From Cryobacterium sp. Y11 (lineage in GTDB: Bacteria; Actinomycetota; Actinomycetes; Actinomycetales; Microbacteriaceae), in NCBI RefSeq assembly GCF_002929535.1, contig NZ_PJJO01000057.1:124001-188000 (forward strand): 64,000 bases of DNA, in the 5' to 3' direction. A program made the translations under genes and the position numbers. The notes beneath the pieces were generated by a model. The model searched no databases. It saw only the letters and a list, made by a program, of their open reading frames with translations, and had not been told where the DNA came from. Shown in pieces: positions 1 through 9,218 of the stretch (its first letter is position 1; every line of letters begins with the position of its first letter).

Positions 1-1761
1 GCGCTCGCCAGTGCCAAGGTCGCCTCCCGTGAGCAGCGTGATGTGATTGCAGAACTGATCGGCGAGTTTCGGTTCACCACGAGCTTTGGCAAAACCCTGT
101 CGCGGCTCATTCGCATGGGAATCGGCGTGCACCACGCCGGCATGCTTCCGAAATACCGCCGGTTGGTCGAGCAGCTCGCGCAGCGCGGCTACCTGCGCGT
201 GATCTGCGGCACCGACACCCTCGGCGTCGGCATCAACGTGCCCATTCGCACCGTGCTGTTCACGGCCCTCACCAAATACGACGGCGTGAAGATGCGCCAG
301 GTGAACGTGCGCGAGTTCCATCAGATCGCGGGCCGGGCCGGCCGGGCCGGGTACGACACCGCCGGCACGGTTGTAATCCAGGCGCCGGAGCACGAGAGCG
401 ACAACCTCAAGGCCATCGAAAAAGCCGGCGACGACCCGAAAAAGAAGCGCAAGATCGTGCGCAAGAAGGCGCCGGACGGCTTCGTGTCCTGGGGCGAGCC
501 GAGCTTTCGCCGGCTGGTCGACGCCGAGCCCGAAACCCTCTCTTCGAGCATGCAGATGACCGCGGCGATGCTCATCAACGTGATCGGACGCGGCGGCGAT
601 GCCTTCGCCCACGTCCACTCGCTGGTCTTCGACAACCACGAACCGTGGCGGCGACAGCTGGTGCTGGCCCGACGCGCCCTCGGTATCTACAAGACGCTGC
701 GCGAAGCCGGCATTGTGGAGCAGAGCGCGAGCGGCAGCATCCGCTTGACCGTTGATTTGCAGGCGAACTTCGCGCTCAACCAGCCGCTGTCACCCTTTGC
801 CCTGGCCGCATTCGAGCTGCTCGACCCCGAATCACCCACCTATTCGCTCGATATGATCTCGATTCTGGAGTCAACCCTCGACGACCCGCGGCCGGTGCTG
901 ATGGGCCAGCAGTTCGCGGCCCGCGGCGAGGCCGTCGCGGCAATGAAGCGTGAGGGCATCGAATATGACGAGCGGATGGCGCTACTCGAGGAGATCACGC
1001 ACCCCAAGCCGCTCGAAGAGCTGCTGAACTATACCTTTGACACCTACAAGGCCTCCCAGCCGTGGATCGCTGACTTCGAACTGAAGCCCAAGGCCGTCGT
1101 GCGCGACATGTACGAGCGGGCCATGTCGTTTGGCGAGTTCATCGCGTTTTATAAGCTCGCTCGCAGCGAGGGCGTCGTGCTGCGCTACCTGTCCGACGCC
1201 TACCGCGCAGCCCGGCAGACCATTCCAGACGAAGCCAAGAATGAGGACCTGCTCGACCTGATCGAGTGGCTCGGTGAGCTGGTGCGCCAGGTGGACTCGA
1301 GCCTGCTCGACGAGTGGGAAGAACTGTTGCACCCCGATCTGGCCGCGCACGCAGCCGAATCGCACGCGATTCTGCCGCCGCCACCGCGCCGGCTCACGAC
1401 CAATGTGCGGGCGTTTCGCATTCTGGTACGTAACGAACTGTTTCGCCGGGTGCAGCTGGCGGCGCTTGAGCACTACGACCAGCTCGGCGAGCTCGACCGG
1501 GAGCACGGCTACGGGGCCGATGTCTGGGCTGACGCGATGGACGGCTACTTTGCCGAACACGACGAACTGCTCACCGGCGGCAACGCCCGCAGTTCTGACC
1601 TGCTCATGATCGAGGAGGGCGTAGAGGAGTGGACCGTGCGCCAAATTTTCGACGACCCGGCCGGCGATCACGACTGGGGCATCAGCGCGAGCGTGAACCT
1701 CGCCGACTCCGACGAGCTCGGCGAGGCCGTCGTGCGCGTAACAGGGGTCAACCGGCTGTAA
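1..1761 (+). CDS. DEAD/DEAH-box helicase, C-terminal part (5' end outside window)
   Basis: The reading frame is open from base 1, so the gene starts upstream; 586 residues are visible. The visible part begins inside the second RecA-like domain of a superfamily 2 helicase: GVHHAGMLPKYRR, then CGTDTLGVGINVP (motif V) and HQIAGRAGRAGYD (motif VI, the QxxGRxGR arginine fingers). The remaining ~450 residues resemble the actinobacterial DUF3516 C-terminal region. Such proteins unwind RNA or nucleic-acid hybrids using ATP; the exact substrate is not known to me. A lysine-rich stretch (DDPKKKRKIVRKKAPDG) follows motif VI. The next gene is convergent. Confidence 0.9.
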   Translation, partial: ALASAKVASREQRDVIAELIGEFRFTTSFGKTLSRLIRMGIGVHHAGMLPKYRRLVEQLAQRGYLRVICGTDTLGVGINVPIRTVLFTALTKYDGVKMRQVNVREFHQIAGRAGRAGYDTAGTVVIQAPEHESDNLKAIEKAGDDPKKKRKIVRKKAPDGFVSWGEPSFRRLVDAEPETLSSSMQMTAAMLINVIGRGGDAFAHVHSLVFDNHEPWRRQLVLARRALGIYKTLREAGIVEQSASGSIRLTVDLQANFALNQPLSPFALAAFELLDPESPTYSLDMISILESTLDDPRPVLMGQQFAARGEAVAAMKREGIEYDERMALLEEITHPKPLEELLNYTFDTYKASQPWIADFELKPKAVVRDMYERAMSFGEFIAFYKLARSEGVVLRYLSDAYRAARQTIPDEAKNEDLLDLIEWLGELVRQVDSSLLDEWEELLHPDLAAHAAESHAILPPPPRRLTTNVRAFRILVRNELFRRVQLAALEHYDQLGELDREHGYGADVWADAMDGYFAEHDELLTGGNARSSDLLMIEEGVEEWTVRQIFDDPAGDHDWGISASVNLADSDELGEAVVRVTGVNRL

Positions 1762-1823
1762 CACCGCGTGCCGCGCGACCGCGACCGCGCCTGCGCCGGG
1801 TGTGAGTGCGCCGACCGGGGCCG

Positions 1824-1841
1824 GGCCGGCCGTGACCGGCC
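1824..1841. terminator. weak GC hairpin between convergent genes
   Basis: GGCCGG and CCGGCC pair over a six-base loop, between the stop of the helicase gene and the stop of the convergent LysM lipoprotein gene. There is no T tract on either side, so intrinsic termination is only a guess from position. Confidence 0.3.
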
Positions 1842-1872
1842 GCAGGTATCCGCTTGTTTGCGGGTTTGCGGG

Positions 1873-2373
1873 TTAGCGGGTGGTGGTCCAGTCGAGGTTG
1901 ATGATCTGCTTGATGTAGATGTTCTCGCCGAGCCCCGGCACCGAGGGATTCATGGTGAGCAGCAGCTGCACCGGAATATTGAACCGCTGCGCGATGTCGA
2001 AGAAGGCGTCGGCCTCGATGACCGTATAGGTGAGCAGCGCTCCGGCACCATCGGATGTGGTTGTGCCGCGCGCCCCCGGCGTGCTGCCCTGATCGGCGGC
2101 CGGGCCCTGCGGCAGAGGCACCGGTTCAGCGTTGGGCACCAGATCGGGAACCGTGGGGTTGGGTATGAGGGCCGCTTCCTCCGTGGGAGTGGGAGTGGGG
2201 GTCGGAGTAGGCGTTGGTGTTGGTGTTGGTGTTGGTGTTGGTGTTGGTGTGGCGCTCGGCGTGATGGTCACGGTGACGGCCGGTGCCGGCTCCCCAGCGC
2301 AGCCGGCCAGCGTCACGAGCAGAACGGCAGCAACGGCGATACCCCACGGGCGACGTGCGAAAAGAGTGCGAAT
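1873..2373 (-). CDS. LysM-like lipoprotein with Thr-Pro linker (probable ATT start)
   Basis: About 166 residues. The N terminus has two arginines, a hydrophobic stretch and the lipobox LAGC, so it should be a membrane-anchored exported lipoprotein. A linker of about eleven Thr-Pro pairs and a charged/proline region follow. The last ~50 residues (LLTYTVIEADAFFDIAQRFN ... IYIKQIINL) read as one LysM-like fold, a peptidoglycan-binding domain. Start choice: no ATG, GTG or TTG lies near the signal peptide in frame; an ATT sits 7 bases after a good GAAAGG Shine-Dalgarno motif (complement of 2381-2386). A CTG (complement of 2382-2384) is the alternative. The frame also continues upstream without a stop to 3069, but that part is the shadow of sdaA. 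Confidence 0.75.
   Translation of the reverse strand: MRTLFARRPWGIAVAAVLLVTLAGCAGEPAPAVTVTITPSATPTPTPTPTPTPTPTPTPTPTPTEEAALIPNPTVPDLVPNAEPVPLPQGPAADQGSTPGARGTTTSDGAGALLTYTVIEADAFFDIAQRFNIPVQLLLTMNPSVPGLGENIYIKQIINLDWTTTR
2183..2248 (+). repeat. hexanucleotide microsatellite encoding Thr-Pro repeats
   Basis: Eleven tandem GTNGGN hexamers, the last six being exact GTTGGT copies (2213-2248). Read on the minus strand each hexamer encodes one Thr-Pro dipeptide of the LysM lipoprotein linker. Copy number could change by slippage without shifting the frame. Confidence 0.9.
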
Positions 2374-2489
2374 GGTGAAACCTTTCAGATGAACGACGGT
2401 TTGGCCCGGCCGACCCACGCGTTCAGCTAGCTTAGGGTGGCATAGCGCCGGAGCGAAAGGCGCGACTACCCCCGTTGGGGGCAAAGCGC

Positions 2490-3875
2490 TCAGCACTCGA
2501 TGACGTTGACCGCGAGGCCTCCTTCGCTGGTCTCCTTGTACTTGGTCATCATGTCGAGGCCGGTCTGCCGCATGGTTTCGATCACGGCGTCCAATGAGAC
2601 GAGGTGGGTTCCGTCGCCGTGCAGCGCCAGCCGCGCGGCAGAGACAGCCGTCGATGAGGCGATCGCGTTGCGTTCGATGCACGGCACCTGCACGAGGCCG
2701 CCGACCGGGTCGCAGGTGAGGCCGAGGTGGTGTTCCATGGCAATCTCGGCCGCATTCTCGACCTGGCGCGGTGTGCCGCCGAGCACGGCGCACAGTGCGC
2801 CGGACGCCATGGCGCACGCTGCCCCGACCTCGGCCTGACACCCACCCTCGGCTCCCGAGATCGATGCGTTCGCCTTGACCAGGGAACCAATCGCAACGGC
2901 GGTGAGCAGATACCGACGGATGCCCGCAGCATCCGCTCCGCGAACAAAGCGCAGGTAGTAGTGTCCGACGGCCGGAATGATGCCAGCCGCCCCATTGGTC
3001 GGAGCGGTGACGACGCGTCCGCCAGCTGCATTCTCCTCGTTGACGGCGAGGGCGAAGGCGTGCAACCACTCGGTGGAGGTGTCGCGGTCGCGCAGCGGCA
3101 GGCGGTCATATTCCTCCAGGCGCATACGTACGGCCGCCGCCCTACGCTTAACCGTGAGACCTCCTGGCAATATACCGTCGGTGTTGAGTCCGGACTCAAC
3201 GCACACGTGCATGGCGTCCCAGATGGCGTCGAGTCCGGCGTCGAGCACGACAGGGCCGTGGAGGGCTTCTTCATTGCGGCGGGCAACCTCGCAAATGTTG
3301 AGGTTGTTGGCGTCGCAGAGCGCGAGCAGTTCGGCGCTGGAATCGTAGGGGAGTGGCTGCGCAGCAACTGCGCGCACCCGGTCGCCATCGTGCCGAATGA
3401 ATCCGCCGCCGATGGAATAGAACGTCTCCTCCCACACGACCGCCTGGGCGCCGGCGCCACACTCATCGGAGCCGAACGCCGTTATGGTCAGCGCGTTCGG
3501 ATGGCCGGGGAGTCGGGTGCGCGGTTCGAAGTGCACGTCATGTTGGCTGATCGGTATGGTGTGCCCACCGAGCAGCGTGATAGTCGCAGTCGCGCCCAAA
3601 CCAGACCAGGCCGCGTGTACCTCGCTCGGATCGCAGGACTCCGGTCGCAGCCCCGTCAGGCCAGCCAGAACGGCGTCGGGGGTGCCATGGCCGAGCCCGG
3701 TAGAACCGAGCGAGCCATACAGCGAGCAGCGGATGCGAGTGACCTCGGCTAGACGACCGGTCTGCTGCAGATGCTCGGCGAACACGCGGGCAGCGCGCAT
3801 CGGCCCCACCGTATGAGAACTGGATGGACCAATTCCGATGGAGAACAGGTCAAGAGCCGAGACGTACGCTGTCAC
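2490..3875 (-). CDS. sdaA: L-serine ammonia-lyase (L-serine dehydratase), iron-sulfur type
   Basis: 461 residues, the usual length of the single-chain [4Fe-4S] enzyme that converts L-serine to pyruvate and ammonia in the cytoplasm. The N-terminal beta domain starts with [20 protein letters not shown]; the C-terminal catalytic domain carries [20 protein letters not shown] and [20 protein letters not shown] with the cluster-binding cysteines. The protein ends in Ile-Glu-Cys; in the Legionella enzyme a C-terminal cysteine folds back as the fourth cluster ligand, so the same tail-in-mouth state is inferred here. The GTG start lies exactly six bases after a TAGCAT -10 box, which suggests a leaderless mRNA. 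Confidence 0.97.
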
Positions 3876-3881
3876 ACCCCC

Positions 3882-3887
3882 ATGCTA
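3882..3887 (-). promoter_or_regulatory. -10 box of sdaA (leaderless type)
   Basis: TAGCAT on the minus strand, six bases before the GTG start of sdaA, so transcription should begin at or next to the start codon. No clear -35 box is visible. Confidence 0.6.
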
Positions 3888-3933
3888 GGGCTATTGGCAG
3901 CGAAATTCGTCGCGCCTCGCACGGGTTGAATAC

Positions 3934-3965
3934 TTGAGCCCCCTTGCGGCAACAAGGGGGCTCAA
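3934..3965 (-). terminator. strong hairpin terminator of the WxL cluster
   Basis: A perfect 13-bp stem (3934-3946 with 3953-3965) closes a six-base loop just after the stop of the last WxL gene and before sdaA. The T tract on the minus strand is poor. Stem strength and position support a terminator that separates the two minus-strand genes. Confidence 0.75.
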
Positions 3966-3988
3966 GAGTTAGGGGAGCGAACTGCTCG

Positions 3989-4573
3989 TTACGCGATGGT
4001 GAAGGTGATGGTTGCGACGTACGGGTTCACAACGGAGTCGCCATAGGCGCCGGCGTAGTTGGAGCGGAACGAGTTGGCCGGAACGGTCAAGTCGAACACG
4101 GGGTTGAGCGTGTAACGGCCCTTGCCGAGCGTGTACGACGAGACGAGCGCTGCCGCTGTGTTCGACATCGTGATGGGCACGGTGGTCGGGGCTGCGTCGG
4201 ATCCGGCACCGGCCGTGACGGTGCCGGGGGTGATCACGAGGTTGCTGGCCGCCAGCACACGAGCCGTTGTATCGACGGTGCCGGCGGCGCTTTCGAAGTC
4301 GGTGACGTTGGCCGAGAGGGACCAGGCCGCGTCGGTGCCGCGAGCGTTGACGACATTCCATTCGGCGGCCTGCCCGGTGGAGATCTTGGTGCTGATGCCA
4401 TCGAGAACGACGGAGGTCATCGCGTCTGGCGCGCTGGCCTGAGCGGTGAGTGAACCAGAGGTGACCGTGGCGTCAACCGTGTCGGTGCTGTCGGCGTAGG
4501 CGGGGGTGAGGGCCACTGCGAGGAGTACGCCGGTGGAAGCGATGATGCTGGTGGCTTTGATGAATGCGTGCAT
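3989..4573 (-). CDS. secreted WxL-domain-like surface protein
   Basis: 194 residues. Signal peptide 1-27 ends AYA before DSTDTV. The mature part is one WxL-type domain: the W-x-L motif is W84-S-L86 (AAWSLSANVTDF) and the C terminus is YVATITFTIA, where the second W-x-L of Firmicutes WxL proteins is replaced by F-T-I. WxL domains bind cell-wall peptidoglycan non-covalently in Gram-positive bacteria (known from Enterococcus, Lactobacillus and Listeria). ATG at 4573 was chosen because AGAGGA lies seven bases upstream and the signal peptide begins there; the frame stays open upstream. It is the last gene of a four-gene minus-strand cluster and closely related to the first. Confidence 0.8.
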   Translation of the reverse strand: MHAFIKATSIIASTGVLLAVALTPAYADSTDTVDATVTSGSLTAQASAPDAMTSVVLDGISTKISTGQAAEWNVVNARGTDAAWSLSANVTDFESAAGTVDTTARVLAASNLVITPGTVTAGAGSDAAPTTVPITMSNTAAALVSSYTLGKGRYTLNPVFDLTVPANSFRSNYAGAYGDSVVNPYVATITFTIA

Positions 4574-4818
4574 GGTGTGTCCTCTGGGTGATGCGGGGGT
4601 GTGAGCGCGCCAAAAAGCATGACCACACGGAGCGGGCTGGAGAAGATGTAGGGCAGCTAATCGCAGGCACGACACGGAAGGTGTCAGTGCCGAACTTGTC
4701 AGTTGCGAGAACGAGTTCCGGTGGCGATAAGTAATCTTCACATGGGTAAAGCCCAAAATGAGTCTCGGTGACGCAGGACTCGATCAGCGTTAGCGCAAGG
4801 TTCGCGCAGCCAGCGCGT

Positions 4819-5871
4819 TTACTCCGCCGGCGGGTTCGACTCGCCCCGGTCGGTCTGGGCAACCTGGGCAATGGCGCGCTTGGCGCGCCGCACGAACACG
4901 GTGCCGCGCCAAATCGTGAGTGCCACGAGCAGCAGCACGAGCACGGCGATGGTGATGATCCACCACGGCAGGTAGACCAAGCTGGTGCTGACCGTATCGG
5001 TACCGGCATCGCTCTGCAGGGTGGCACGGGCGGTACCGGCCTGAATGAGTGGCAGCCCGGTGAGCATGGCCGTAAGTGTGAGTGACGCCCCGGGCAGGAT
5101 GCTTTCGGGGGTGCTGAAGGTCAGCGACGTGTTCACACCGATTGGGCTCTCGATCGACAGCGCACCGGTCGGATTCAAGATCGTGTTGCCGGTATTGGTG
5201 ATGGGCAACGCGAAGGTGATGTCGTCGCCGGAGCGTTCCCAACTCAGGTCTCCGTGCTCCAGCACCGCGGAAGCCGTTCCGTCGACGGTCAGATAGATGC
5301 GCACCCCTTGGCGCTGGATCACGTCGAGTCGCAGAGCAGCATCGCCGCCGCTTGTCGTTGTTTCGCCCTGCACCGGCGGGCTCTGAATGATCAGGCCACC
5401 GGCATAGTCGCCGGGGGTGGTGCCGACCGGAACCGCGACGCGAAACGGTACCGCCAGATCCGAATTGGCCTGCACAGTGATTTCGGCGGCGCCGAGCGTA
5501 ACCCAGGCACCGACCCCGATGCTCGTGTCGGCCTGTGCGGCCAGGGCAAATGCTCCTTGGGCTGTGCTCTGACCGTCGACGGCATAGTTCAGCAGCGTCA
5601 CCGCGGCATCCGTGTGGTTGCTGACGATGGCGGTGGCGTCGATAGCGGCTCCGGGCGCCAGAGAGATATGAAAAAAGTCCGACTCGAGTTGGGGACGAAT
5701 GCCGAGGGTTCCGTCGTCGATAGCCTGTGCCGTTTGCGGAATGCTTAATGCCAGGCCAACCGGCGCGAGCAGGGCAGCGGTCAGCAGCAGGGCGACGCCA
5801 CGACGGGACCGATTATTGTGATGGTGCGCGGTCCGACGGGGGCGGGCGGGGCGTCGGAACGTGAGGAGCAT
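4819..5871 (-). CDS. DUF916-type WxL-interacting membrane protein
   Basis: About 350 residues. A basic N terminus and signal peptide ending QTAQA lead into the extracellular part. Residues ~50-165 fit the DUF916 (WxLIP peptidoglycan-binding) domain: FFHISLAPGAAIDATAIVSN, GAWVTLG and VPVGTTPGDYAGGLI. A second beta domain (~170-295, position of the DUF3324 domain) follows, then one transmembrane helix (~303-321) and a basic cytoplasmic tail. In Firmicutes such proteins are always encoded beside WxL proteins and bind them at the surface. Here it lies between two WxL genes. ATG 5871 has AAGG eight bases upstream. Confidence 0.82.
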   Translation of the reverse strand: MLLTFRRPARPRRTAHHHNNRSRRGVALLLTAALLAPVGLALSIPQTAQAIDDGTLGIRPQLESDFFHISLAPGAAIDATAIVSNHTDAAVTLLNYAVDGQSTAQGAFALAAQADTSIGVGAWVTLGAAEITVQANSDLAVPFRVAVPVGTTPGDYAGGLIIQSPPVQGETTTSGGDAALRLDVIQRQGVRIYLTVDGTASAVLEHGDLSWERSGDDITFALPITNTGNTILNPTGALSIESPIGVNTSLTFSTPESILPGASLTLTAMLTGLPLIQAGTARATLQSDAGTDTVSTSLVYLPWWIITIAVLVLLLVALTIWRGTVFVRRAKRAIAQVAQTDRGESNPPAE

Positions 5872-5995
5872 GGGGTGAACCTTAGACGAGTAAACGGGTG
5901 GACCCCCGGATGAGGGCACAGTGATAGTGAAATGCGCGGTACTGAAAATGCACGGTATCAAAGCGCGAACAGCCACGCTTGAACGCACGAGTGCG

Positions 5996-7231
5996 TCAGC
6001 TGATGGTGAACGTGAGAGTTGAAACATAAGGGTTCAGCGGGGAAGCATTGATGTCGCCGGCATAGTTCGGCCGGAAGGCATTGGACGGGATGGCGAGGCT
6101 GAAGGTCGGCGTGAGCAGGTAGGTGCCCGTGTTCGATCCCACGCTCGACAACAAGGTTTGGGGCGCGCCACTCATCGTGAGGGCAGGCCCAACGATGAGC
6201 TCCGGATTCACGCCGTTGGGTCCGAGAGTGATCGGGCCAGGGTCGATCACCAGGCTGCCGACGGGCAAGCTACGCGCGACCAACTCGACCGTGCCGGCCG
6301 CGCTCGTGGCCGCCGTCGCGGTGACCGTCAGCGTCCACGCGGCGCCAGTGCCGCGATCGTCGATGACGGACCACTGGGTTCCGGAGCCGGTCGCGTACTG
6401 GGTGCTCGTACCGTTGAGAACGACCTCGGACAGTGGCGCACCGCCGGTCGACGCGGTCAGCGTGCCGTGGCGCACCGGAGTGAGTGTGAAGGTATTTGAA
6501 TCGAGGGTGACCGCCCCGTCGAGGGCGAGCGCGCGACCGTCGAAGGCCGTTCCGGTGGTGACAGTGATTGACGCCTGCGCCAGGATGGTGCCGGCGAAAA
6601 TGGTCATGGCACCCAGCGTGGCTGAGCTGCCGACCTGCCAGAACACGTTGGATGCCTGGGCGCCGTTGATCAGGCTGACGGCGCTGCCAGACGCGGTGGT
6701 GAGGGTAGAGCCAATCTGCATGATGAAGACCGCGTTGCGGTCATTGCCGGCGTCGAGGGTGAGCGTTCCGGTGATGCCGACGCTGCTTACCGCTCGATAG
6801 ACGCCCGGAATGAGCGTTGTACCGACAATTTCGGGGGCGAGGATTGCGTTGGATTCTCGACCAGCGGCATCCGCGTAGGCCAGTTGCAGGTCAGCGTGGG
6901 CCTCGGCTGCATCGGCGCCGACCTTGATGGAACCGGCTACGTTCTCCGGGGGCATGCCGGTCACGGCCGTACCCGGGCTGACCCCGACGTCGCCGCTTGT
7001 CGTGGTGAGTCCGGTGTTGGTTGCCGTCGATGCGCCCAGGACCGAGAAGCTCTCCGCTACACCAAGGGCGACTGGTGCCGGCGAGGACCAGGCCTGCGCC
7101 GGCAGTGCAGTTCCGGCGACCAGGGCCAGCGCGAGCGTGAGCGTGAGGGTAAGCGTAAGGGCGCGAGCGCGCAGACGGGTCGACACAGTGACGCCGGTCA
7201 TAGGCGTTCTGTTCGATCGGTGAGCGGGCAT
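5996..7231 (-). CDS. ice-binding-like (DUF3494) protein fused to a WxL-like domain
   Basis: 411 residues. Signal peptide about 1-47 (run of Leu-Thr repeats, cleavage after AQA). Residues ~55-250 fit DUF3494, the beta-solenoid fold of microbial ice-binding proteins: SFSVLGASTATNTGLTTTSG, IPGVYR, FWQVGSSATLG and GTILAQASITVTTGTAFDGR. Residues ~255-411 form a WxL-like domain with W299-T-L301 and the end YVSTLTFTIS. So an ice-binding-type domain is joined to a wall-binding domain. It begins 11 bases after the upstream WxL stop, consistent with translational coupling; ATG at 7201 is an alternative start. DUF3494 is also found in non-ice adhesins, so ice binding needs testing. Confidence 0.85.
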   Translation of the reverse strand: MPAHRSNRTPMTGVTVSTRLRARALTLTLTLTLALALVAGTALPAQAWSSPAPVALGVAESFSVLGASTATNTGLTTTSGDVGVSPGTAVTGMPPENVAGSIKVGADAAEAHADLQLAYADAAGRESNAILAPEIVGTTLIPGVYRAVSSVGITGTLTLDAGNDRNAVFIMQIGSTLTTASGSAVSLINGAQASNVFWQVGSSATLGAMTIFAGTILAQASITVTTGTAFDGRALALDGAVTLDSNTFTLTPVRHGTLTASTGGAPLSEVVLNGTSTQYATGSGTQWSVIDDRGTGAAWTLTVTATAATSAAGTVELVARSLPVGSLVIDPGPITLGPNGVNPELIVGPALTMSGAPQTLLSSVGSNTGTYLLTPTFSLAIPSNAFRPNYAGDINASPLNPYVSTLTFTIS

Positions 7232-7242
7232 GGCGGTTGGGC

Positions 7243-7854
7243 TTAGGCGATGGTGAAAACGATGGTCGACGTGTATGGGTGCACGCCGTCGACGCCCACG
7301 TTGGAGCGGAAGGCATTGGCGGGAATGTCCAGGCTAAACAGAGGCGCCGCGAGAACAAACGAGCCCTTGGCGCCGGTTCCTGAAACGGGCGCGGAGACGA
7401 GTGCCTGGGCGAGCGTTGACATCGTAACGGCGGCGGTGTCGGGCGCGGTATCTGCGCCGCCGGCCGCGACCACTGTGCCGGGGGTGATGACGAGATTCGT
7501 CACGGCAATCGTGCGTGGCACCAGTTCGTCCGCCGAAGTTCCGGGGGCACTCGTGAAGTCTGAAGCGGATGCCGACAGGGTCCAGCTGGCTCCGGACCCC
7601 CGCGCGTCACTGATGGTCCACGGCGCGGCGGTGCCGGTTGAGCGTTGCTCGCCGCTTCCCAGCACGACGCGAGACATGCCGCGAGGCGCCGACACTGTGG
7701 ATTGCAGCCCACCAGACATAACGGTGAACTGAACGGTGTCTGTCGAGTCGGCTGAGGCCGGCTCCCCTCGATACACAGTTGCGCCGACCAGGGACGTGCC
7801 CACCAAGAGTCCGGTGACGATGAGGGTGCGAACCATCGTGGTGCGTATGCGCAA
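7243..7854 (-). CDS. secreted WxL-domain-like surface protein, first gene of cluster
   Basis: About 203 residues. A signal peptide ending EPASA precedes DSTDTVQFTV. The domain has W-T-L in GASWTLSASASDF and ends YTSTIVFTIA, so it parallels the protein at 3989-4573 over its whole length. Start choice: TTG at 7854 lies six bases after AGGAGA; ATG at 7836 is the downstream alternative. The frame runs further upstream without family resemblance. It is the promoter-proximal gene of the WxL cluster and leads directly into the DUF3494-WxL gene. Confidence 0.78.
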   Translation of the reverse strand: MRIRTTMVRTLIVTGLLVGTSLVGATVYRGEPASADSTDTVQFTVMSGGLQSTVSAPRGMSRVVLGSGEQRSTGTAAPWTISDARGSGASWTLSASASDFTSAPGTSADELVPRTIAVTNLVITPGTVVAAGGADTAPDTAAVTMSTLAQALVSAPVSGTGAKGSFVLAAPLFSLDIPANAFRSNVGVDGVHPYTSTIVFTIA

Positions 7855-7930
7855 TGGACGTCTCCTGAGCGAGATAGGGGCGGGAACAAACCGAGTGCAT
7901 CGTCGTTGCCGCGAAAAATGCCCTGAGTTA

Positions 7931-7963
7931 ACTCTGAAGAGAGTGAGACTCTGAAAGAGTGAG
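7931..7963 (-). repeat. imperfect tandem repeat upstream of the WxL operon
   Basis: Two adjacent copies, 17 and 16 bases (ACTCTGAAGAGAGTGAG and ACTCTGAAAGAGTGAG), lie about 80-110 bases before the first WxL gene. Their place in the promoter region makes a regulator-binding role possible, but nothing else shows it. Confidence 0.5.
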
Positions 7964-8071
7964 AACTGTGGAAAGAACGACAGCTCCGCTCTTGAGTGGA
8001 CACTGTAGCACTCCTTGATGCCCATTTGATACAAGCTCAGAAATGGGCAGGAATGCAGGGCGGGACACGAA

Positions 8072-8097
8072 AAGGCCGCCTCCGGGGAGACGGCCTT
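8072..8097 (-). terminator. terminator of the desaturase gene
   Basis: AAGGCCG pairs with CGGCCTT around an inner CTC/GAG stem; on the minus strand the stem runs into TTTT. It lies 20 bases after the desaturase stop. Confidence 0.8.
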
Positions 8098-8117
8098 CGT
8101 GTGCGATTTTGCGATTG

Positions 8118-9218
8118 TCAGTGCGTGCGGAACCGAGCGGTCATCGGGCAGTCGAACGGGTCGCGAGCGGCCAGTCCGACCTTGTTGAGGTAGGCGATGA
8201 CAATGCCGTAGCTCTCAAAGACGCCGGTCTCGGTGTACTTCACATCGTGCGACTGGCAGTATTCCTTGGCGATCACCTGCGCCTTACGCAGGTGCGGGCG
8301 GGCCATGTTCGGAAACAGGTGGTGCTCGATCTGATAGTTGAGCCCGCCCATGTAGTGGTCGATGAAGCTTCCACCGCGAATGTTACGGCTGGTCAGCACC
8401 TGGCGGCGTAGAAAATCGACCCGGCTTTCGGCCGGAAGCTGTGGCATCCCCTTGTGGTTAGGCGCGAAGGTCGCTCCCATGTAGACCCCGAATACGGCCA
8501 TTTGCACGCCAACGAAAGCGAACGCCATGCCGAGTGGCAGAAAATAAAAAATTACGGCGAAGTAGAGCGCGAGACGCGTCACGAGCATGCTGATTTCGAC
8601 CCAGCGTTCGCTGACCTTGTTCTTACCGAAGACGGTCTTGAAACCCTGGACGTGCAGGTTGATGCCTTCGAACATGAGCAGTGGGAAGAATAGGTAGCCC
8701 TGCTTGCGGGTGACGAAGGAACTGAGCCAGCTGACCTGCTTGGCGTCATTCTCGGTGAACACGATGAAGTCGGGTTCGATATCGGGGTCTTTTCCGATGA
8801 CGTTCGGCTGGGCGTGGTGACGACTGTGCTTGGTCATCCACCAGGCGTAGCTGATGCCGACGAACAGGTTGGCGAGAATACGGCCGGCCCGGTCGTTGGC
8901 CTTGCCGGAGGTAAACACGGCGCGGTGCGAGGCTTCGTGGGCCAGAAAAGCGAACTGGGTGAAGAGCAAGCCGAGAGCTGCGGCGATGATGAGCTGGTAC
9001 CAGGTGTCACCGAGCAGAATGAAGCCGGCAGCGGCACCGCCGGTGGCGACGACGAGGATGGAGAAAACCATCCAATAGAAACCGGTGCGCCGTCCGAGGA
9101 GGCCCAGATTGCGCACGGTGTGCAACAGTGCCGAATATTCGGTTGTGGGATTTTTGGTGTCTCCACCCGGCCGGGTCCTGATGATGCGGACCGATGGTGC
9201 GGCTGTTATTTCCGACAT
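8118..9218 (-). CDS. membrane fatty acid desaturase (front-end type)
   Basis: 366 residues with several transmembrane helices. The three histidine boxes of membrane di-iron desaturases are H94EASH98, H131SRHH135 and Q296IEHH300. Glutamine as first residue of the third box is typical of front-end (delta-5/delta-6-like) acyl desaturases and related actinobacterial enzymes, which insert a double bond into membrane-bound acyl chains with oxygen and reduced ferredoxin or cytochrome. No cytochrome b5 domain is fused. Its likely role is keeping membranes fluid at low temperature. ATG 9218 has AGGAAGG four bases upstream. Regiospecificity cannot be read from sequence. Confidence 0.92.
   Translation of the reverse strand: MSEITAAPSVRIIRTRPGGDTKNPTTEYSALLHTVRNLGLLGRRTGFYWMVFSILVVATGGAAAGFILLGDTWYQLIIAAALGLLFTQFAFLAHEASHRAVFTSGKANDRAGRILANLFVGISYAWWMTKHSRHHAQPNVIGKDPDIEPDFIVFTENDAKQVSWLSSFVTRKQGYLFFPLLMFEGINLHVQGFKTVFGKNKVSERWVEISMLVTRLALYFAVIFYFLPLGMAFAFVGVQMAVFGVYMGATFAPNHKGMPQLPAESRVDFLRRQVLTSRNIRGGSFIDHYMGGLNYQIEHHLFPNMARPHLRKAQVIAKEYCQSHDVKYTETGVFESYGIVIAYLNKVGLAARDPFDCPMTARFRTH

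What the first reader, a model, noticed from the sequence alone, without database searches (positions are those of the whole stretch)
3989..7854. A WxL-type surface complex in an actinobacterium, including an ice-binding-like member
Four adjacent minus-strand genes encode two secreted WxL-like proteins, a DUF3494-WxL fusion and a DUF916-type WxL-interacting protein with a membrane anchor. WxL/WxIP loci are best described in low-GC Firmicutes as wall-bound multiprotein complexes. Here all three WxL domains keep the first W-x-L (WSL, WTL, WTL) but replace the second by F-T-I at the very C terminus. The set could be a cell-surface assembly for attachment to ice or cold surfaces, with the DUF916 protein as its membrane base.
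Basis: partly seen in the sequence, partly recalled or inferred. Interest (0 to 1): 0.85.

Follow-up and report, generated by a model that had tools for sequence, protein, structure and literature searches.

The report
Ice-binding wall complex in Cryobacterium
A glacier-type bacterium appears to hold an ice-binding protein on its cell surface with a protein-anchoring kit best known from gut bacteria, which would give that kit a clearly host-free job: gripping or shaping ice.

Summary
Confirmed and extended. Four minus-strand genes at 3989-7854 encode two small WxL-like proteins, a DUF3494 (ice-binding) protein ending in a WxL-like domain, and a WxLIP (DUF916-type) membrane protein. WxLIP homology is firm: PF06030 just above cut-off, genus profile hits E. 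faecium WxLIP in the PDB (E 8.7e-6), best structural match 9i25_C (Z 18.2). The window's WxL hits are below Pfam's cut-off; WxL homology is firm only through other actinobacterial sequences, and the second W-x-L is replaced in 51 of 51 genus domains (here F-T-I). The genus is Cryobacterium. IBP-WxL occurs in 16 of 57 genomes, at one chromosomal site; in five others that site is closed up, one keeping a wxl2 remnant. The IBP here is the only DUF3494 domain found in its genome and has a Ser/Thr-rich ice-binding face (12 of 16 positions). IBP-free WxL+WxLIP pairs sit in Arthrobacter, Paenarthrobacter, Amnibacterium and C. fucosi. Best reading: an envelope-anchored ice-binding complex, a new variant of the WxL cluster; ice adhesion versus local ice shaping is untested. 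WxLIP also resembles pilus chaperones and the WxL-like domain, weakly, pilins, so a donor-strand assembled ice-binding fibre is not excluded.

The parts
7243..7854 (-). wxl1: small secreted WxL-like protein (TTG start, AGGAG upstream); WxL-like domain about 7246-7746
   Evidence: (PF13731 23.8 bits, below cut-off); terminal FTI
5996..7231 (-). ibp-wxl: secreted DUF3494 ice-binding-like domain (about 6488-7042) fused to a C-terminal WxL-like domain (about 5999-6475)
   Evidence: PF11999 192.6 bits; PF13731 15.6, below cut-off; PDB 6eio E 2e-47; Z 31-35 to solved IBPs
4819..5871 (-). wxlip: DUF916-like first domain (about 5383-5685), HBD-like second domain (about 4972-5277), TM helix (about 4924-4980), R-rich C-terminal tail
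   Evidence: PF06030 28.2 bits; 9i25_C Z 18.2
3989..4573 (-). wxl2: small secreted WxL-like protein; WxL-like domain about 3992-4489
   Evidence: (PF13731 23.3 bits, below cut-off); terminal FTI
8118..9218 (-). fatty-acid desaturase-like gene (name by recall), upstream boundary of the site; not part of the complex
   Evidence: flank of occupied and closed-up sites
2490..3875 (-). L-serine ammonia-lyase-like gene (sdaA; name by recall), downstream boundary of the site; not part of the complex

Best explanation
The locus builds a surface complex that holds a DUF3494 ice-binding domain on the envelope of a Cryobacterium. WxLIP stays in the cell membrane by its C-terminal helix with the R-rich tail inside (inferred from the positive-inside rule). 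Its two Ig-like domains take hold of the WxL-like domains, by strand insertion if it works as modelled for Firmicutes WxLIP (inferred by homology). The two small WxL-like proteins and the WxL-like end of ibp-wxl bind the wall and one another (inferred), and the ice-binding domain points outward with its Ser/Thr face free. Outcome: cells hold on to ice or shape the ice next to them (inferred). Shown: homology of the parts, predicted folds, the conserved gene set and site, an intact ice-binding face. Not shown: ice binding, wall binding, contacts between the proteins.
For: WxLIP: PF06030 in 26 of 26 relatives, 11 of them distant paralogues; hhalign to four Firmicutes WxLIPs 97%, E 1.2e-10 over 226 columns; best PDB matches E. 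faecium WxLIP, Z 18.2 and 17.4. IBP: Z 31-35 to solved IBPs at 1.1-1.7 A (25 rows), 44% identity to 6eio over 211 residues; 6eio is, by recall, EfcIBP, which has thermal hysteresis (PMC10992025, passages). Outward residues on four B-face strands, places taken from AnpIBP (PMC7277481, passages): 12 of 16 Ser/Thr, 16 of 16 small, the S153 and T156 equivalents kept. Only DUF3494 domain found in this genome. IBP-WxL in 16 of 57 genomes at one site. Purifying selection against one sister, G019 (dN/dS 0.17-0.32). Eight of eight named species found with IBP-WxL lie in the mainly psychrophilic cluster 1.
Against: No assay. The window's WxL hits are below Pfam's cut-off; direct profile comparison with Firmicutes WxL covers 18-23 columns only (23.7% and 48.7%). 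The second WxL motif is absent. No Pfam hit to DUF3324. The site is closed up in five genomes, one with a remnant, so the locus is dispensable; 46 of 57 genomes carry some DUF3494 domain, so in most genomes it is not the only or not this one. In the three-IBP proteins of other species the face is poorer in Ser/Thr: first domain 2-6, second 3-9, third 2-5 of 16. The WxLIP-WxL contact was not modelled here.
Confidence: 0.62

Rival explanations
1. The WxL-like end holds the IBP only loosely, and its job is ice shaping or recrystallisation inhibition around the cell (partly shed into the medium), not adhesion.
For: WxL proteins are found both on cells and in the medium in Firmicutes (PMC5817068, passage). 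DUF3494 proteins of bacteria seem to control the ice around the cell (PMC5014055, passage). No extender repeats lie between IBP and WxL here.
Against: Two small WxL-like proteins and a membrane WxLIP usually stay with IBP-WxL at one site, more than a shed IBP needs; the window genome and G019 have no other DUF3494 hit.
Confidence: 0.23
2. The DUF3494 domain has left ice binding and works as an adhesin for polysaccharide, dust or other cells; the cold habitat is incidental.
For: Beta-helical adhesin domains occur in the N-terminal part of some Firmicutes large WxL proteins (PMC9772566, parts 1-2 of 4 read). The locus is missing from many Cryobacterium genomes.
Against: Ser/Thr face kept at 12 of 16 places; purifying selection on the IBP part (dN/dS 0.22, one pair); WxL+WxLIP pairs of soil-type Arthrobacter have no IBP in the stretch fetched (soil habitat by recall).
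Confidence: 0.12
3. The WxL-like domains are not wall binders but stacking modules that WxLIP chaperones, so that the complex sits on the membrane rather than on peptidoglycan.
For: After E. faecium WxLIP, the fold of WxLIP is nearest to pilus chaperones (Z 12.0 and below); the WxL-like part matches pilins weakly (Z 6-7.3).
Against: Wall binding of the WxL domain was shown in Firmicutes (as told in PMC5817068); Z below 8 may be only a common arrangement (note).
Confidence: 0.15

Closest known systems
WxL gene cluster (csc) of Firmicutes
   Same: Small WxL + large WxL with an N-terminal binding domain + WxLIP, adjacent and secreted; [quoted passage not shown]
   Different: Actinobacterium of an ice genus; binding domain is DUF3494; second W-x-L is F-T-I; the large protein has small-type motif spacing (108, not about 68); no LPxTG protein among the four genes (by eye).
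E. faecium WxLIP and WxLIP-long WxL complex (PDB 9i1y, 9i25)
   Same: Two Ig-like domains; Z 17-18 over about 235 residues.
   Different: 16-17% identity; rmsd 4.8-5.3 A. The paper behind the entries was not seen.
DUF3494 ice-binding proteins: 6eio (EfcIBP by recall), AnpIBP (7bwx), SfIBP_1 (6bg8)
   Same: Same fold at 1.3-1.7 A rmsd, B-face chemistry kept against AnpIBP and 6eio.
   Different: No WxL-like end in the chains compared (by length); S. frigidimarina IBP is tethered by Ig-like repeats (PMC9957290, passages).
MpIBP, the Marinomonas primoryensis ice adhesin
   Same: Ice-binding domain presented on the cell surface.
   Different: 1.5 MDa protein with extender domains and another ice-binding region (PMC5014055, passages and abstract); unrelated to DUF3494 by recall.
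Chaperone-usher pili (FimC/FimG, CsuC/CsuA, Caf1M/Caf1)
   Same: WxLIP resembles the chaperones, the WxL-like domain weakly the pilins.
   Different: Likeness of fold only; no usher was looked for; the chaperone-like part is membrane-anchored here.

Membership tests
WxL domain (PF13731) | First W-x-L motif in a D/N-x-R-G context | tested here: met
   Met in the three window domains; W and the D/N-x-R-G/A context in 51 of 51 genus domains, strict W-x-L in 45 (WTV 5, WGM 1)
WxL domain (PF13731) | Second W-x-L motif near the C terminus | tested here: not met
   FTI 44, YTI 3, ITI 2, FTM 1, YTL 1 of 51; hence 'WxL-like'
WxL domain (PF13731) | Score over Pfam's curated cut-off | tested here: not met
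   23.8, 15.6, 23.3 bits against 25
WxL domain (PF13731) | Profile homology to recognised WxL | tested here: met
   99.4% to actinobacterial WxL, and those 96.8% to Firmicutes; direct comparison weak
[quoted passage not shown]
   1 WxLIP and 3 WxL-like, adjacent; rests on counting WxL-like as WxL
WxLIP | PGBD (DUF916) over cut-off | tested here: met
   28.2 against 27.3 bits
WxLIP | HBD (DUF3324) second domain | tested here: inconclusive
   No DUF3324 hit in Pfam, but hhalign and the structure match run through it
WxLIP | C-terminal TM helix; 337-365 aa | tested here: met
   350 aa from ATG 5871; hydrophobic stretch, next 20 residues 5 K/R and 0 D/E
WxLIP | NQIDKxxxYFDLK motif | tested here: not met
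   Window reads PQLESDFFHISL at this place: only in part alike
WxLIP | Physical binding to WxL | not testable with these tools
   no complex prediction or assay possible
DUF3494 IBP (PF11999) | Pfam score and beta-helix fold | tested here: met
   192.6 bits; Z 31-35
DUF3494 IBP (PF11999) | Small, Ser/Thr-rich residues on the B-face | tested here: met
   12 of 16 Ser/Thr, 16 of 16 small on four strands; two further strands not compared
DUF3494 IBP (PF11999) | Ice binding | not testable with these tools
   needs protein
Chaperone-usher pilus | Outer-membrane usher | not tested
   not searched
Chaperone-usher pilus | Chaperone-like and pilin-like folds | tested here: inconclusive
   Z 12.0 and below for WxLIP, 6-7.3 for the WxL-like part

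The most novel reading that the evidence does not exclude
A Gram-positive counterpart of chaperone-pilin assembly: WxLIP acts as a membrane-anchored donor-strand chaperone and base, the two small WxL-like proteins are stacking subunits, and IBP-WxL is the tip adhesin, giving a short ice-binding fibre. Basis: the WxLIP fold lies next to pilus chaperones and has a poorly ordered stretch (about residues 165-187 of 350) just before a long strand, which I take to match the hairpin that was modelled to enter WxL in Firmicutes; weak pilin likeness of the WxL-like domain; separate small and large WxL lineages mostly kept together.
Probability: 0.13. Interest if true: 0.88.

Novelty: new variant of a known kind. 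Interest (0 to 1): 0.64.

Why it matters
WxL clusters have been read as host-adhesion and virulence devices, with the WxLIP helix even proposed to enter host membranes (PMC10599100). Here the same kit sits in a genus of cold habitats with a binding domain whose likely ligand, ice, can be tested directly. In the 15 close WxLIPs aligned, the helix is followed by 3-6 K/R and no D/E in 20 residues (the 11 distant paralogues are mixed, one net negative), which fits anchoring in the bacterium's own membrane. It would also show one way in which a Gram-positive cell holds an ice-binding protein; no paper holding both 'ice-binding' and 'WxL' was found in the open library.

Tried and rejected
A conserved Arg pair in WxLIP (R187, R191) holding the WxL C-terminal carboxylate, as told from memory for pilus chaperones: dropped, because the Arg residues are not kept in four Firmicutes WxLIPs and one Firmicutes WxL has a long tail after its last motif. 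Profile match of the WxL-like domain to PDB sequences: A2 and A8 found nothing credible; 9i25_A (long WxL) was found only with a Firmicutes profile (E 0.0043), and it is not among the 50 rows listed for the IBP-WxL model (inconclusive). NCBIfam gave a sub-threshold IBP hit and no WxL. The consensus scan of 3800-8300 found no promoter and no terminator; Rfam found only two tRNAs in the window. The IBP-free loci of the genus as the same site before the IBP came: not supported, none of four such loci shows the flanks. One value (wxl1) came from a wrongly set reference and is void; one search replaces it. The two structure jobs went to IBP-WxL and WxLIP, so the small WxL proteins and any complex were not predicted. 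The species scan uses one peptide pattern; absence from it says nothing. An earlier wording of this report, 'lost in five', is withdrawn: only G036 shows a remnant.
Full report
Anatomy. The four genes are read right to left: wxl1 (7243-7854), ibp-wxl (5996-7231), wxlip (4819-5871) and wxl2 (3989-4573); starts of wxl1, wxlip and wxl2 are my choice within longer frames. Gaps are 11, 124 and 245 bases. Each protein starts with a signal-peptide-like stretch (by eye). Pfam gives Ice_binding 192.6 bits, WxLIP_PGBD 28.2 (cut-off 27.3) and WxL 23.8, 15.6 and 23.3 (cut-off 25). The W-x-L reading is right: W-T-L, W-T-L and W-S-L first, F-T-I at the end, with 108, 108 and 106 residues between.

Homology. 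Of 26 WxL-like domains of the genus 24 hit Pfam WxL at E<=0.1; of 26 WxLIPs (15 close, 11 distant paralogues) 26 hit PF06030. The genus WxL-like profile joins ten WxL sequences of other actinobacteria (99.4%, 1.9e-21), chosen from the 19 match rows; these join four Firmicutes small WxL (96.8%, 3.2e-10). The direct step is weak (48.7% over 23 columns; 23.7% over 18 columns against the set with large WxL); an unrelated pair gave 0.2%. WxLIP joins four Firmicutes WxLIPs directly (97%, 1.2e-10, 226 columns), and its profile hits E. faecium WxLIP in the PDB (E 8.7e-6, first domain only); the single sequence does not.

Structure. The WxLIP model (mean pLDDT 81.6, pTM 0.64) matches E. faecium WxLIP first (9i25_C Z 18.2, 4.8 A, 235 aligned; 9i1y_A Z 17.4, 5.3 A), then, among others, many pilus chaperones (Z 12.0 and below). 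The IBP-WxL model (pLDDT 86.2, pTM 0.69; the other four models 70-75) matches 25 DUF3494 chains over residues 1-211 (Z 31-35) and, over about 208-366, pilins, archaeal cannulae and other beta proteins at Z 6-7.3, which may be only a common arrangement. In the WxLIP model residues about 165-187 are poorly ordered just before a strand (187-196); in Firmicutes WxLIP the hairpin modelled to enter WxL is likewise unordered alone (PMC10599100, parts 1-2 of 4 read). That the two correspond is my inference.

Ice-binding face. With the B-face strands and outward positions told for AnpIBP (PMC7277481, passages), four strands compared, the window domain has 12 of 16 Ser/Thr and 16 of 16 small residues, as have G019 and the short form of G026; the 6eio protein has 12 and 14, AnpIBP 6 and 11. 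The two AnpIBP residues whose change to Tyr cut activity to 17% (S153, T156) are kept. In the three-IBP proteins of other species Ser/Thr number 2-6, 3-9 and 2-5 of 16 in the first, second and third domain, so ice binding is less sure there.

Genus. Names come (Cryobacterium). With WxLIP as query 32 of 57 genomes hit, 19 with the close form. A search with the WxL profile finds 21 of 57: 16 with IBP-WxL, three with IBP-free loci (G013 = C. fucosi, G020, G054), and fragments in G029 and G036. Of the 16, the window and G019 (C. levicorallinum) have one IBP domain; 14 have several in tandem (13 three full ones, G006 a shortened set), G026 having both kinds. At the 16 loci the desaturase is seen in 15 and sdaA in 15, both in 14 (G012: the contig ends; G014: no sdaA found); in G019 sdaA is in broken frames; at four IBP-free loci neither is seen. 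Of the other 41 genomes I looked upstream of sdaA in 40 (G039 left out): 5 have desaturase and sdaA 83-516 bases apart (G015, G020, G036, G037, G045), 27 have 2.4-4.9 kb of other sequence without a WxL, WxLIP or IBP hit, and 8 show no desaturase in the stretch, three of them because the contig ends. G036 holds a truncated wxl2 in the closed-up site, which shows one loss; the other four may be losses or never had it.

Lineages. In the tree of 50 WxL domains (midpoint root, for drawing only) the large ones (17 rows, 97/96) stand apart from most small ones (29 rows, 100/99); four small ones of IBP-free loci fall beside the large ones (21 rows together, 100/99). The small proteins next to the one-IBP form (window, G019, G026) make their own set (3 rows, 100/99), which suggests that a large protein travels with its own small partner (inference; the window and G019 are close kin). 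dN/dS against G019: IBP part 0.22, WxL part 0.18, wxlip 0.19, wxl2 0.32, wxl1 domain 0.17, wxl2 domain 0.27, desaturase 0.10.

Outside the genus. Of 249 Microbacteriaceae genomes drawn evenly 12 match the WxL profile: four of this genus, eight others. Of the eight, G194 and G251 have IBP-WxL with three IBP domains; the other six matches are weak, in long proteins not scanned for IBP. Loci of Arthrobacter, Paenarthrobacter and Amnibacterium have small WxL + WxLIP with no IBP hit in the stretch fetched. In 396 actinobacterial genomes WxL occurs in 15, WxLIP in 33, both in 10, then within 3 kb (p 9e-9).

Ecology. The eight named species found with IBP-WxL (levicorallinum, suzukii, melibiosiphilum, frigoriphilum, aureum, gelidum, flavum, ruanii) all belong to cluster 1 of PMC10067761, where most psychrophiles lie; C. 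fucosi lies in cluster 3 (section 9 part 1 and section 14 read). Growth: suzukii, gelidum, frigoriphilum 0-18 C, fucosi 0-24 C (passages). Cluster 1 has 14 strains; the other six are not accounted for, and kinship alone could give this pattern. DUF3494 is found in 46 of 57 genomes of the genus; the window genome and G019 have one match each, this one.

Literature. Searches: WxL + Actinobacteria + surface protein (six papers), WxL + DUF916, ice-binding + WxL (none), Cryobacterium + ice-binding protein (eight), WxLIP (two), DUF3494 with Gram-positive or ice adhesin, WxL domain + Arthrobacter (one, on bee-gut bacteria). PMC9772566 gives over 91% of WxL sequences to Firmicutes, so others were known. 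Nothing that I saw describes an IBP-WxL; most of these papers I know from the listing only, and the library lacks most subscription journals.

Verdict. A new variant of the WxL cluster, with ice the likely ligand. The domains fail the second motif and the Pfam cut-off, so I call them WxL-like; that lowers 'it is a WxL domain', not 'the set works like a WxL cluster'.

Noticed in passing
L178 (G036) about 118-516: Truncated wxl2 left between desaturase and sdaA: a scar of loss of the locus.
   Followed up: yes
L052 2738-7154 (G032): A distant WxLIP paralogue follows a phosphoesterase-like protein (name by recall) whose C terminus has a WxL-like motif (D-x-R...W-S-V) and ends in YKATLTLTALS; before it a HupE-like gene (name by recall). 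This recalls the DUF916/metallophosphatase neighbourhood told in PMC12537917 (passages).
   Followed up: partly
window about 1873-2480, minus strand: Lipoprotein-like gene with a PT-repeat linker and a LysM-like end (by eye) beside sdaA, found beside most of the IBP loci.
   Followed up: no
L044 (G026) 1120-9048: One genome holds both the one-IBP and the three-IBP WxL proteins around a single WxLIP.
   Followed up: partly
L039 (G034) 6021-7214 and L043 (G006) 5976-6878: wxlip is interrupted or shortened although neighbouring WxL and IBP genes stay open; in G033 wxl1 is broken instead.
   Followed up: no
G053:C10:493307-494992: A second long frame (837 aa) with two or more DUF3494 domains and no WxL match; its anchor was not looked at.
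   Followed up: no
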